The notes beneath the pieces are model-generated. The model was not told where the DNA came from and ran no database searches. It saw only the letters and a list, made by a program, of their open reading frames with translations. A stretch of 5,779 nt of DNA, from assembly GCA_016200725.1 (NCBI GenBank), contig JACQEE010000245.1:1-5779 (forward strand), in the 5' to 3' direction. A program made the position numbers and the translations under genes. This stretch comes from Chloroflexota bacterium. Its GTDB lineage: Bacteria > Chloroflexota > Dehalococcoidia > SHYB01. Positions 1,213 through 5,779 of this stretch are shown here, one piece after another. Position 1 is the first letter of the stretch. Each line of letters begins with the position of its first letter.

Positions 1213-2946
1213 ATGACCACCACGACATCCTCGCTCCAGCGCCGTCGGTGGGACGTTGCGCCGCTAGCGACGGCTGAGGTGGTTCGCGCGCTGCGCGACT
1301 ACCCGCCGATCATGGCGCAGTTGCTGTTCAACCGCGGCGTCCGAAGCGTTGCCGACGCCGAGGCCTTTCTACATCCGCCAGCGTCATCGCCCGACGACGC
1401 GTCACGCATCCCCGGCGCGCAGGCGGCTGTCGAGCGCATCATGCGTGCGCTACGCAACCGCGAACTCATCGCGGTGTATGGCGACTTCGATGCCGATGGC
1501 GTCACCTCAGCGGCGTTGCTCACCGAGTGGCTGCACTCCGCGGGCGCGCGCCTCGTACCGTACATCCCCGACCGCGTGAGCGAGGGCCACGGGCTGAACC
1601 TGGGCGCGGTGCAGGAGTTGCACAGTCGCGGCGTCAAACTGATCGTCACCGCCGACTGCGGCATCACCAACCACCCCGAGGTCGCCGCCGCTGCTGACCT
1701 GGGCATCGACGTGGTCATCACCGACCACCATACGCCGCCAGCGTCGCTGCCGATGGCGAGCGCGGTCGTCGACCCCAAACTCCCCGGCTCGCCGCCTGCG
1801 TACGCGGGCCTCGCCTCCGTCGGCGTGGCCTTCACCCTCTGCGAGGCGCTCGCTCGCGAGCTGAGCGTCGACCTCGACCCCGCGCTGCTCGAGTTCGTGG
1901 CGCTGGGCACCATCGCCGACATGGCGCCGATGACGGGGCTGAACCGTTCGCTGGTGCGCGAAGGCTTGGCGCGGCTCAACAAGAGCCAGCGTCCGGGGAT
2001 ACGAGCGCTGCTCCAGGCCGCGCGACTCGAGTTGGGGCACGTCGACACGGAGTCGGTCGCATTCGCGCTGGGGCCGCGCATCAACGCGCCTGGACGCATC
2101 GACCACGCGAGCCCGGCCTATCTGCTGCTGACGGCGCCGGAGATGGAGGAGGCGCAACGACTCGCCGAGCAGATCGACGCCGCGAACGGCGAGCGCCAGC
2201 GCACTACCGCCGACGTGCTGGCCAAGGTGCGCGACTACCTCGCGCAACTCGAGGCGATGCCGCCGATCCTCATCCTCGGCGACGAGTTGTTCCCCGCGGG
2301 CATCGTCGGCCTCGCGGCAGGCAAACTGACCGAGCAGTGCTACCGGCCGTCGATTGTCTACCAGCGCGGCGACCGCGAGTGCCGCGCCTCGTGCCGCAGC
2401 ATCCCGGAGTTCAACATCATCGAGGCGTTGCGAGAGTGCGACGGCAAAGGTCCCGTTCGTGGTGAGCCTGTCGAACCACTCTTTGTCCGCTATGGCGGCC
2501 ACGCCCAGGCGGCTGGCTTCACCATCGCGACGGAGCGGCTGCCGGAACTCGAGCGACGCCTGCTCGCTATCGCCGAGCGCAAGTTGGCGGGACAGCCGCT
2601 CGTGCCGCGCATCGCCATCGATGCGGAGATACCGCTTGGGCGCATCAACGGGCCGCTGATCAAGGCGATGCGCGACCTGGCGCCCTTCGGCCTCGGCAAC
2701 CCCACGCCGATCTTCCTCGCCCGCGACGTCGAGGTGCGCGACATGAAGGCCGTCGGCGCGGACGGCAAGCACTTGCGCATCACGCTGAGGGATGGCGCGG
2801 TCGCCTGGACTGCGATGGCCTTCAACGCGCCGCCGCTCGAAGGCTCGACGCCCAAGCGCATCGACGTGGTCTTCAACCTGAGCGTGGACAGGTTCAACGG
2901 CCGGGAGACGCTACGGCTGAACGTGGTGGATTTTCGGAGGGCGTGA
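1213..2946 (+). CDS. recJ: Single-stranded-DNA-specific exonuclease RecJ
   Basis: A complete 577-residue RecJ, the 5'-to-3' single-strand DNA exonuclease of recombination and mismatch/base-excision repair. The DHH domain has motif I DFDADG (91-96), motif II TADCGIT (146-152), motif III DHH (171-173) and GTIADMAPM (232-240), the aspartate/histidine set that binds two Mn/Mg ions. RINAPGRI (289-296) and SCRSIPEFNI (393-402) follow. The DHHA1 domain has GGHAQAAGF (428-436), then PFGLGNPTPIF (491-501) and the OB-fold end (about 505-577). Length is typical. All key residues are intact. ATG 1213 is the only usual start after the in-frame TAG at 1171. No Shine-Dalgarno precedes it, and its leader is pyrimidine-rich. 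An extra segment of about 12 residues (411-422, GKGPVRGEPVEP) sits where RecJ usually runs straight into the strand before GGH. It encodes a palindromic element described separately. The stop overlaps a possible GTG start of the next ORF. Confidence 0.97.
   Translation: MTTTTSSLQRRRWDVAPLATAEVVRALRDYPPIMAQLLFNRGVRSVADAEAFLHPPASSPDDASRIPGAQAAVERIMRALRNRELIAVYGDFDADGVTSAALLTEWLHSAGARLVPYIPDRVSEGHGLNLGAVQELHSRGVKLIVTADCGITNHPEVAAAADLGIDVVITDHHTPPASLPMASAVVDPKLPGSPPAYAGLASVGVAFTLCEALARELSVDLDPALLEFVALGTIADMAPMTGLNRSLVREGLARLNKSQRPGIRALLQAARLELGHVDTESVAFALGPRINAPGRIDHASPAYLLLTAPEMEEAQRLAEQIDAANGERQRTTADVLAKVRDYLAQLEAMPPILILGDELFPAGIVGLAAGKLTEQCYRPSIVYQRGDRECRASCRSIPEFNIIEALRECDGKGPVRGEPVEPLFVRYGGHAQAAGFTIATERLPELERRLLAIAERKLAGQPLVPRIAIDAEIPLGRINGPLIKAMRDLAPFGLGNPTPIFLARDVEVRDMKAVGADGKHLRITLRDGAVAWTAMAFNAPPLEGSTPKRIDVVFNLSVDRFNGRETLRLNVVDFRRA
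2452..2479 (+). repeat. Palindromic element copy 1, in frame inside recJ
   Basis: A 28-nt element: CCCGTTC, a 5-bp stem arm GTGGT (2459-2463), an 11-nt loop GAGCCTGTCGA (2464-2474), and arm ACCAC (2475-2479). It starts on a codon boundary and encodes PVRGEPVEP (RecJ 414-422). A second copy lies at 5659-5686 on the - strand with the same loop and flank but a stem of different sequence that still pairs. Short dispersed repeats of this type, leaving EPVE-like peptides in predicted proteins, occur in various bacterial genomes. Confidence 0.8.
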
Positions 2947-4390: not shown

Positions 4391-5779
4391 TCACCCCGCC
4401 ACGGGCTGCGCCTCGTGGGAGACGGCGATGCCTTCGGCGACCCACTGGTCGACGGTGGCGTTGTCGTAGCCGAGTTCGCGAAGGATGGGGCGGGTGTGCT
4501 CGCCGAGGTAGCAGTTGGGGCCCGCCTGCCCTGGCGTCAGCGAGAAGGCCCACGGGGCGTTGGCGCGCCAGTACTTCCCGAGCGACGGGTGCTCGGTCGG
4601 CGTGTAGATGCCGGCGTCCTTAGTCCAAGGCTGCGTCACCAGGAACTTGCCGTTGTCGCCGTCGAGCACCTCGACGCAGGCGACGTCGGCCTTCGCGAGC
4701 AGCGCCTCCCACTCCCTGGCCGTGCGCGTCGCGAAGAGGGGCTCGAGCGCGGCGGCCAGCGCGGCATCGTTGGCGCGGCGAGCCTCAACGGTGTTGAAGC
4801 GCGCATCGTTGAGCAGATCGGTGCGACCCGTTGCCTTGCCGAAGGCCTCCCACTCGCTTTGTGAAGGGCAGGCGAAGAAGACCCACCACTGCTTCGTCTG
4901 GTATTGGCGATAGAGCGCGTTGAGGCCGTTGAAGTCCTTGTCGACGGATGGACGCTCGGGTTTGCCCGCGTACGAGAGGGCGTCGTCGGCGTTGGCGTAG
5001 AGGTTGCCGCCGAGCATGGAGGTCTCGACATACTGGCCCTTGCCGGTGAGCGCGCGGTAGTAGATCGCGAGCATCGTCGCTGAGGCGCAGGCCATCGCGG
5101 CGCAGGGGTCGGGATTCGTCTCGTTCGACTTGCGCGTGATGTGGCCGTAGTACTGCAACTCGTCGAGGGTGAGCGGCTGGTCCGAGGGCGGAATGACCGT
5201 CTTCGCCTGCTGCCAGGGCGCGCCGGTGATTGCGCCAGCGATGGGGTGGAAGCCCGTCCGGTGGCTGTGCGGCCCCGTCGAGCCATAGGCGCCCGCGTAG
5301 ACGTAGACGATGTCCGGCCTGATCTTGCGAGCCGTTTCCCAGCCGATGCCGAGGCGCTCGGGGACTCCAGGCCGGAAGTTGTGCAGCAGGACATCGCTCT
5401 TGGCGATCAACTTCTGCACCGCCTCCTGCGCGCGCGGGTCCTTGAGGTCGAGCGAGAGCGCCTCTTTCCCCTGGATCGTCTTGCACATCTTTGGGAAGGC
5501 CATCGCGCGGTAGAGGTCGCCGGTGATGGGCTCAATCTTGATGACGCGCGCGCCGAGGTCGGAGAGCAGGCCGGTCACCCACGGCGAGGCGATGAACGTC
5601 GCGAACTCCATCACGGTGAGGCCGCTCAGCGGATGCTTGGGTATGCTCGTGCCCGCCCGCCCTTCGACAGGCTCAGGGCGAACGGGAAGGCGCTTCGACT
5701 CGAAGCCCTTGCCGTTGTGCTCGCCGACCGCCTGCGCGGGCGCCTGCGGCACGTATGGCGACAGCGAGAACTTACCGAG
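4391..5779 (-). CDS. CaiB/BaiF (family III) CoA-transferase, partial, probably tandem two-domain
   Basis: A family III CoA-transferase, which moves CoA between carboxylic acids through an aspartyl-CoA intermediate. Residues are numbered from the GTG at 5752. The N-terminal signature is PLSGLTVMEFATFIASPW (41-58) with LGARVIKIEP (66-75). DVLLHNFRPGVPERLGIG (120-137), VYVYAGAYGSTGP (149-161), GKGQYVETSM (237-246) and the closing LGEHTRPILRELGY (416-429) follow. Asp215 in NPDPCAAM is the likely catalytic aspartate, just before the helix leading to the conserved YYRALTGKG. The domain (about 43-453) has normal length. The GTG at 5752 has no clear ribosome site, and the frame stays open to the window edge, reading LGKFSLSPY before it. 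The whole stretch LGKFSLSPYVPQAPAQ then VGEHNGK resembles the end of a CoA-transferase domain: compare LGKYW, FSLTPG and LGEHT in this protein's own C-terminus. So the gene is probably a fusion of two such domains, and the start lies outside the window. The linker (about 20-40) holds palindromic element copy 2. It heads the ABM-VOC gene run. Substrate unknown. Confidence 0.9.
   Translation of the reverse strand, partial: LGKFSLSPYVPQAPAQAVGEHNGKGFESKRLPVRPEPVEGRAGTSIPKHPLSGLTVMEFATFIASPWVTGLLSDLGARVIKIEPITGDLYRAMAFPKMCKTIQGKEALSLDLKDPRAQEAVQKLIAKSDVLLHNFRPGVPERLGIGWETARKIRPDIVYVYAGAYGSTGPHSHRTGFHPIAGAITGAPWQQAKTVIPPSDQPLTLDELQYYGHITRKSNETNPDPCAAMACASATMLAIYYRALTGKGQYVETSMLGGNLYANADDALSYAGKPERPSVDKDFNGLNALYRQYQTKQWWVFFACPSQSEWEAFGKATGRTDLLNDARFNTVEARRANDAALAAALEPLFATRTAREWEALLAKADVACVEVLDGDNGKFLVTQPWTKDAGIYTPTEHPSLGKYWRANAPWAFSLTPGQAGPNCYLGEHTRPILRELGYDNATVDQWVAEGIAVSHEAQPVAG
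5659..5686 (-). repeat. Palindromic element copy 2, in frame in the CoA-transferase linker
   Basis: Read on the - strand: CCCGTTC, arm GCCCT, loop GAGCCTGTCGA, arm AGGGC (28 nt). It is identical to copy 1 (2452-2479) at 22 positions. All six differences are in the stem and preserve pairing (TGG/CCA in copy 1, CCC/GGG here). It starts on a codon boundary and encodes PVRPEPVEG (residues 23-31 from the GTG at 5752), in the same frame relative to the element as in recJ. It lies in a low-complexity linker ahead of the conserved CoA-transferase domain. Confidence 0.8.

What the first reader, a model, noticed from the sequence alone, without database searches (positions are those of the whole stretch)
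2452..5686. Two 28-nt palindromic elements with fully compensating stem changes
Copies at 2452-2479 (+) and 5659-5686 (-) share the 5' flank CCCGTTCG, the core TGAGCCTGTCGAA and the last C. The six differing bases are exactly the three inner pairs of a 5-bp stem (TGG/CCA versus CCC/GGG), so the hairpin is kept while its sequence is replaced. Two random copies of a repeat would not be expected to differ only this way. The pattern implies selection on, or a copying mechanism dependent on, DNA/RNA structure, as in REP-like or Rickettsia-type palindromic elements. A fixed GTTC beside the stem recalls the guide tetranucleotide next to REP hairpins moved by TnpA-REP (RAYT) transposases. That last link is inference.
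Basis: partly seen in the sequence, partly recalled or inferred. Interest (0 to 1): 0.75.

Follow-up and report, generated by a model that had tools for sequence, protein, structure and literature searches.

The report
A widespread hairpin repeat with covarying stem
Two near-identical 28-letter hairpins in this window belong to a scattered family of tiny palindromic repeats, in Chloroflexota genomes and Proteobacteria plasmids, whose stem letters change while the pairing stays; one copy sits as an in-frame insert in a conserved DNA-repair gene, and what spreads them is unknown.

Summary
Both copies match CCGTTCG-NNN-TGAGCYTGTCGAA-N'N'N'-C. In 342 distinct fetched copies (tag and core fixed by the search, stem free), 989 of 1026 stem cells form standard pairs, against 21-52% with the partner slid. 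The exact pattern is in 31 of 400 genomes of the phylum, 1 to 195 copies each; reversed controls are 0 in all 400. Relatives lie on plasmids of Sphingobium, Comamonas, Polaromonas and, diverged, Moraxella. The recJ copy is a 33-bp in-frame insert absent from all 26 homologues aligned. Inverted neighbours nearly always carry unlike stems: 78 of 79 tag-outside pairs with intact stems. The window copies are the two commonest half types, TGG and CCC. The RAYT idea is not supported: 29 of 30 RAYT-like loci examined hold no exact core (up to about 1.5 kb each side), and five of the ten richest genomes have no RAYT match; a weak genome-level association remains (p = 0.02). Best filing: a REP-like family outside the GTAG and CGTC superfamilies of PMC3733652, with an unknown mover.

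The parts
2452..2479 (+). Palindromic element, TGG/CCA half type: tag CCCGTTCG, stem TGG/CCA, core TGAGCCTGTCGAA, last C
   Evidence: family
2446..2478 (+). 33-bp in-frame insert in recJ (residues 412-422, KGPVRGEPVEP) made of 6 extra bases plus 27 bases of the element
   Evidence: absent from all 26 aligned homologues, 47-65% identical
5659..5686 (-). Palindromic element, CCC/GGG half type: tag CCCGTTCG, stem CCC/GGG, core TGAGCCTGTCGAA, last C
1213..2946 (+). recJ, single-strand DNA exonuclease (DHH, DHHA1, RecJ_OB), host gene of copy 1
4391..5779 (-). CoA-transferase family III gene, 3' part of an approx. 805-aa enzyme cut by the window end; copy 2 lies in what aligns as a variable linker, read as PVRPEPVEG

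Best explanation
Both features are solo half-units of a dispersed, REP-like family of palindromic repeats, here called the GTTCG family. A half-unit is a 5' tag CCGTTCG, a three-base variable stem, a near-invariant TGAGCYTGTCGAA apex and usually a closing C. Shown: the family is multi-copy, its stem covaries, copies in four rich genomes are mostly intergenic, many pair head-to-head into units whose two halves have different stems, and copy 1 lies in recJ as a 33-bp in-frame insert that homologues lack. Inferred: an enzyme or replication-linked process that recognises the folded half (fixed tag and apex, free but paired stem) multiplies the repeats, and copies inside genes survive only where the frame stays open and the site tolerates about 10 extra residues. 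Also inferred: unlike halves persist because like halves would make a perfect 50-bp palindrome, which cells tend to lose. The mover is unknown and, in Chloroflexota, probably not a RAYT encoded beside the repeats.
For: Stem: 168 of 197 distinct copies fully Watson-Crick, against a shuffle mean of 42 and maximum of 59 in 2000; 989 of 1026 cells pair in register against 21-52% slid, with ten Watson-Crick stem types. Spread: 31 of 400 genomes, 653 exact copies, 18 to 195 in each of the ten richest. Insertion. Intergenic bias: 156 of 191 copies, in stretches that are 81-92% coding by a crude caller. Placement: 36 of 100 intergenic element sites lie between convergent genes, which are 128 of 703 intergenic regions; 12 of 100 between divergent genes, 143 of 703. 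Unlike halves: of 61 exact head-to-head dimers none has both triplets alike and 3 share the outer triplet, where within-genome shuffles give 25 on average and never fewer than 12; tail-to-tail 10 of 10 unlike; all loci held, both stems intact: head-to-head 78 unlike to 1 like, tail-to-tail 6 to 1.
Against: No movement was observed and no target duplication is visible by eye at the recJ insert, whose 6 extra bases are unexplained. The CoA-transferase copy lies in a variable linker, so no clean empty site exists. Genomes searched are unnamed and of unstated completeness. Many dimers in one genome may descend from one event (55 of 61 are TGG with CCC), so the count overstates independent cases. 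Two like inverted pairs exist. The contrast with same-direction neighbours is weak: 17 of 19 intact pairs are alike, but all 16 like ones are in one genome, G233, and three same-direction pairs 24 bases apart in G008 are not alike.
Confidence: 0.7

Rival explanations
1. Classical REPs moved by a RAYT (Y1 HUH) transposase, GTTC being the guide tetranucleotide.
For: Short tagged hairpins, dimers, intergenic bias. RAYT-like matches in 20 of 31 element-bearing against 156 of 369 other genomes, p = 0.02; over the cut-off 7 of 31 against 51 of 369, p = 0.19. One RAYT in genome G010 lies about 120 bases from an element.
Against: 29 of 30 RAYT-like loci examined (of 54 rows) have no exact core in up to about 1.5 kb each side. 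No RAYT match in G313, G022, G161, G012 and G121, five of the ten richest genomes. Broad Y1 family PF01797: 9 of 32 element-bearing against 37 of 80 others, and 1 of 31 such loci has an exact core. The tag often faces its complement.
Confidence: 0.12
2. Stem complementarity comes from mutation, not selection: quasipalindrome correction by template switching copies one arm onto the other, so a change in one arm is soon mirrored.
For: It explains concerted three-base compensations in one step. A G313 dimer with an inverted inner part and three dimers with like outer triplets but one broken own stem look like arm exchange.
Against: The same process acting on dimers should make the two halves alike, yet 78 of 79 intact tag-outside pairs are unlike, unless like ones are lost. 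It does not explain how copy number rises.
Confidence: 0.2
3. A functional RNA or terminator motif (3' end stabiliser) that is maintained in place by selection and is not mobile.
For: Copies lie mostly between genes with an excess between convergent genes; 87 of 199 distances to 3' ends are at most 60 nt, against 35 of 109 to 5' ends.
Against: Patchy presence (31 of 400 genomes), in-frame insert in recJ, and a copy inside a DNA polymerase III alpha gene. No Rfam family matches the elements in the window or in 12 loci.
Confidence: 0.12
4. Chance similarity of two GC-rich segments.
For: Single halves are not unusually stable and the window alone gives only a modest excess.
Against: 653 exact copies with reversed-pattern controls at zero.
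Confidence: 0.01

Closest known systems
GTAG-tagged REPs with RAYTs (Di Nocera et al. 2013, PMC3733652; read: abstract, Results parts 1-3 of 4, section on tyrosine transposases, Discussion part 1 of 2, found passages)
   Same: Short palindromes with compensating stem changes, a tag at one end, dimers, mostly intergenic with some inside genes, patchy across phyla including Chloroflexi.
   Different: Tag is CCGTTCG, not GTAG, and often faces its complement. Variable stem of three pairs and a large fixed apex. No exact core at 29 of 30 RAYT-like loci examined.
CGTC-tagged REPs, including Rickettsia RPE-4 and RPE-6 (same paper)
   Same: No dedicated transposase found; head-to-head dimers predominate; the paper already reports a preference for heterodimers in most families (with exceptions such as CGTC-1) and proposes protection from SbcCD; copies inside genes; many alphaproteobacterial hosts.
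   Different: CGTC repeats have 8-9 bp stems almost always beginning with AT, 4-5 base loops and mostly CCA-like tails; the present family does not.
Rickettsia palindromic element RPE-1 (named in the same paper; its sequence was not compared here)
   Same: Insertion of a palindromic repeat into protein-coding genes.
   Different: RPE-1 is described there as a longer insertion; sequence relation not tested.

Membership tests
GTAG REP / RAYT system | Terminal GTAG tag not involved in base pairing | tested here: not met
   Tag is CCGTTCG; in dimers and in 20 further elements it faces CGAAC/CGAACGG. In the two window copies it has no such partner.
GTAG REP / RAYT system | RAYT gene flanked by the repeat | tested here: not met
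   1 of 30 RAYT-like loci examined carries an exact core; an in-house Y1 profile on other held loci gave only that same gene.
GTAG REP / RAYT system | Short palindrome in many dispersed copies | tested here: met
CGTC REP superfamily | Terminal CGTC, 8-9 bp stem starting with AT, 4-5 base loop, CCA-like tail | tested here: not met
   Consensus GTTCG-NNN-TGAGCYTGTCGAA-NNN-C; only stems beginning TC happen to spell CGTC.
CGTC REP superfamily | No association with a transposase gene | tested here: inconclusive
   No RAYT association in cis; no transposase evident by eye among the recurrent ones of 188 neighbouring proteins; other enzymes were not searched.
Rickettsia-type palindromic elements | Insertion into coding genes with the frame kept | tested here: met
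   33-bp insert in recJ, absent from 26 of 26 aligned relatives.
Rickettsia-type palindromic elements | Sequence relation to described RPEs | not tested
   No RPE sequence was compared.
MITE | Target-site duplication and a parent transposon with matching ends | tested here: inconclusive
   No duplication seen by eye at recJ; parent transposon not found.

The most novel reading that the evidence does not exclude
A third tagged superfamily of palindromic repeats, shared by Chloroflexota and Proteobacteria, is spread by an enzyme that is not a neighbouring RAYT and that reads a folded half-unit by its fixed tag and apex. Its full unit is a head-to-head dimer under a near-strict rule that the two halves must have different stems, and solo halves are broken-off or separately copied parts.
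Probability: 0.3. Interest if true: 0.68.

Novelty: new variant of a known kind. Interest (0 to 1): 0.5.

Why it matters
Small palindromic repeats are found in many bacteria, and for the CGTC superfamily no dedicated transposase was found (PMC3733652). This family gives a clean test case: an exact search pattern, a genome with 195 exact copies and no RAYT over the model's cut-off, a strong covariation signal, and a measurable rule that inverted halves are unlike. It also puts short hairpin-encoded peptides into conserved proteins such as RecJ, which affects annotation and the study of tolerated insertions.

Tried and rejected
Chance: rejected. RAYT in cis: not seen in Chloroflexota. A first in-house Y1 profile used wrong-frame seeds and was redone; the redo still contained one wrong-frame seed (L085) but at E 0.001 recovered 16 of 17 other Y1 loci given as a check (17 at 0.01). 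Known RNA family: none over the elements. Recurrent neighbouring enzyme as the mover: among 188 neighbouring proteins seven clusters of three or more were seen, none an evident transposase by eye; no domain search was made on them. Two hairpins on an outer stem as the favoured fold of dimers: not favoured as naked DNA; in six virtual dimers one long hairpin is always more stable, and unlike stems weaken it by about 7 to 12 kcal/mol. Frame use inside genes as evidence for purged stops: dropped, because the crude caller ends a gene at a stop, so the zero for the TGA frame holds by construction. An absolute unlike-halves rule: rejected, two like inverted pairs exist. Phages: no match of the 54-nt dimer query in 50,697 records; 91 stretches of IMG/VR match the single pattern, whose hosts were not worked out. 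Breadth in another phylum by genome search could not be run (one search returned an error).

Literature: searches for the core strings, for recalled peptide forms of the repeat, for RAYT and palindrome terms, for Rickettsia palindromic elements, for REP, heterodimer and Chloroflexi, for intragenic palindromes and for CCGTTCG/CGAACGG (15 of 149 listed) showed no description of this family in the listings; only PMC3733652 was opened, and in parts. The library holds open-licence PMC papers only, so an earlier description elsewhere cannot be excluded. I recall, from no call, that peptides such as PEPVEG and FDKLR are common in predicted proteins of many bacteria. Quasipalindrome correction is likewise recalled, from no call.
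Full report
What is there. The two 28-base segments are present exactly as described. Copy 1 lies inside recJ (1213-2946, +), copy 2 inside a CoA-transferase family III gene on the other strand. RecJ homologues place the window in Chloroflexota, near Dehalococcoidia. The window's own genome is not held, so the family was studied in relatives.

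A family, not a pair. The core TGAGCNTGTCGAA was counted in 12 genomes reached through RecJ: 10 of 12 have it, with 150, 40, 19 and 11 copies in the richest four and reversed-pattern controls of 0 to 2. The exact pattern GTTCGNNNTGAGCYTGTCGAANNNC was then counted in 400 genomes of the phylum of G012 (a Chloroflexi MAG): 31 have it, 653 copies in all, G233 leading with 195, and the reversed control is zero in all 400. A 54-nt dimer query matches 39 plasmid records: Moraxella 20, Sphingobium 13, Comamonas 2, and one each of Polaromonas, Sphingomonas, Novosphingobium and Methylotuvimicrobium. Eleven stretches of plasmids of Polaromonas, Comamonas, Sphingobium, Novosphingobium and Moraxella were scanned; in the one Moraxella stretch the copy is diverged, only one half being within one core mismatch. 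No phage record of 50,697 matches.

Stem covariation. The patterns left the stem free. Of 197 distinct copies then held, 168 have three Watson-Crick pairs; dealing the right arms anew gives 42 on average and never more than 59 in 2000 trials. On 342 copies, 989 of 1026 cells form a standard pair (G-T included), against 21 to 52% when the partner is slid by 1 to 3 bases; ten Watson-Crick stem types occur, led by CCC/GGG, TGG/CCA, TCC/GGA, GGC/GCC and TGC/GCA. These sets share ancestry, so shuffles overstate significance, but the range of stem types does not depend on that. In G161, whose list is complete, 54 of 56 copies with at most two mismatches keep the full stem, while the last base differs from C in 27. 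At three mismatches the list takes in chance matches and 56 of 68 keep the stem. Energy alone does not single out a half-unit.

The insertion. In recJ the element is part of an 11-residue insert between CDG and LF.RYGGH that none of 26 aligned homologues has (26 of the 119 other listed homologues were aligned). The insert is 33 bp, 2446-2478: six unexplained bases and 27 of the element. Copy 2 lies where homologues vary in length and sequence, so insertion there is likely but not demonstrable (24 of the 119 other listed homologues aligned).

Anatomy beyond the halves. In 1.5 Mb from four rich genomes, chosen mostly around known copies, many copies form head-to-head dimers (47 intact pairs); 38 of 61 exact dimers in 23 genomes searched have no spacer. 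A second form, mostly in G022 and G161, has CGAACGG after the inner stem and a further outer stem that itself covaries (120 of 140 cells against a shuffle mean of 94 and maximum of 107; 20 elements). Thus the tag often faces its complement, unlike the free tag of GTAG and CGTC repeats; in the two window copies it does not.

Unlike halves. Of 61 head-to-head dimers none has both triplets alike; three share the outer triplet, and in each of these one half has a broken own stem. Shuffling outer triplets within genomes gives 25 like pairs on average and never fewer than 12 in 5000. Fifty-five of the 61 are TGG with CCC, so independent cases are far fewer. Ten of ten tail-to-tail pairs are unlike. 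Over all loci held, pairs with both stems intact are: head-to-head 78 unlike, 1 like; tail-to-tail 6 unlike, 1 like; same direction 2 unlike, 17 like; 23 further pairs have a broken stem and were set aside. Of the two like inverted pairs one came up through a like-halves query (L425, 55-base spacer), the other lay in a plasmid stretch fetched earlier (L282, one tag degraded). The contrast with same-direction pairs rests almost wholly on tandem arrays of G233 (all 16 like pairs), and three same-direction pairs 24 bases apart in G008 are not alike, so it is suggestive only. Unlike stems weaken the long hairpin by about 7 to 12 kcal/mol, though it stays the most stable fold. Di Nocera et al. already report preferential heterodimers in most REP families, with exceptions, and suggest protection from SbcCD (PMC3733652), so the rule has a precedent.

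Where copies lie. A crude gene caller puts 156 of 191 copies between genes, 11 across gene ends and 24 inside genes, in stretches 81 to 92% coding. Seven host frames were searched and all seven have Pfam domains. By position, the copies in three of them (L313, L324, L331) are near the N-terminus and may precede the true start; one in L289 lies between two domains; and the one in the DNA polymerase III alpha gene (L320) falls inside a matched helix-hairpin-helix domain. Sites between convergent genes are over-represented, those between divergent genes under-represented. Both window copies being inside genes is therefore not typical.

The RAYT question. With PF01797, 9 of 32 element-bearing and 37 of 80 element-free genomes match, p = 0.09 (the 80 are the element-free handles from G013 to G100, of 369). 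With the RAYT model NF047646, 20 of 31 and 156 of 369 match at E 0.001, p = 0.02, and 7 of 31 and 51 of 369 over the cut-off, p = 0.19. This is a weak association without correction for kinship. Physical association is not seen: of 30 RAYT-like loci examined (30 of 54 rows; some cut short by contig ends), one has an exact core, in G010, and three have a one-mismatch core without a paired stem. Of 31 loci found with PF01797 one, the same gene, has an exact core. By contrast GTAG repeats are often close to RAYT genes.

Conclusion. It is best filed as a new variant of REP-like repeats with its own tag and apex. The mover is not identified. Selection on a folded half is the most economical reading of the own-stem covariation, because in the long dimer hairpin the stem would face the other half instead.

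Noticed in passing
L089 (same gene as L415; genome G010), about 1500-1830: A RAYT-like domain (NF047646 over its cut-off) lies in one open frame with a DNA methylase domain (N6_N4_Mtase), with three tandem copies of a 45-base repeat upstream and one family core about 120 bases downstream.
   Followed up: partly
G313:C115:21691-21740: A dimer whose inner part is inverted relative to its outer triplets, as if the inner arms had been flipped, so both own stems are broken.
   Followed up: no
L286 about 7655-7862 and L287 (genome G233): Same-direction arrays of mostly like-stem copies, one with a period of 61 bases, suggesting tandem duplication rather than dispersal.
   Followed up: no
G022 and G161 loci, for example L335, L337, L357: Long-palindrome class CCCCAATCCGTTCG ... 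CGAACGGATTGGGG with a covarying outer stem and a short variable spacer.
   Followed up: partly
window 133-163: Perfect 15-bp inverted repeat around one base, ending in A and T runs, just after a stop codon at 129-131; a likely bidirectional terminator.
   Followed up: no
window 2943-3410: 155-residue open frame with no Pfam match downstream of recJ.
   Followed up: no
window 2446-2451: Six bases AAAGGT of the recJ insert that belong neither to the element consensus nor to the homologues.
   Followed up: no
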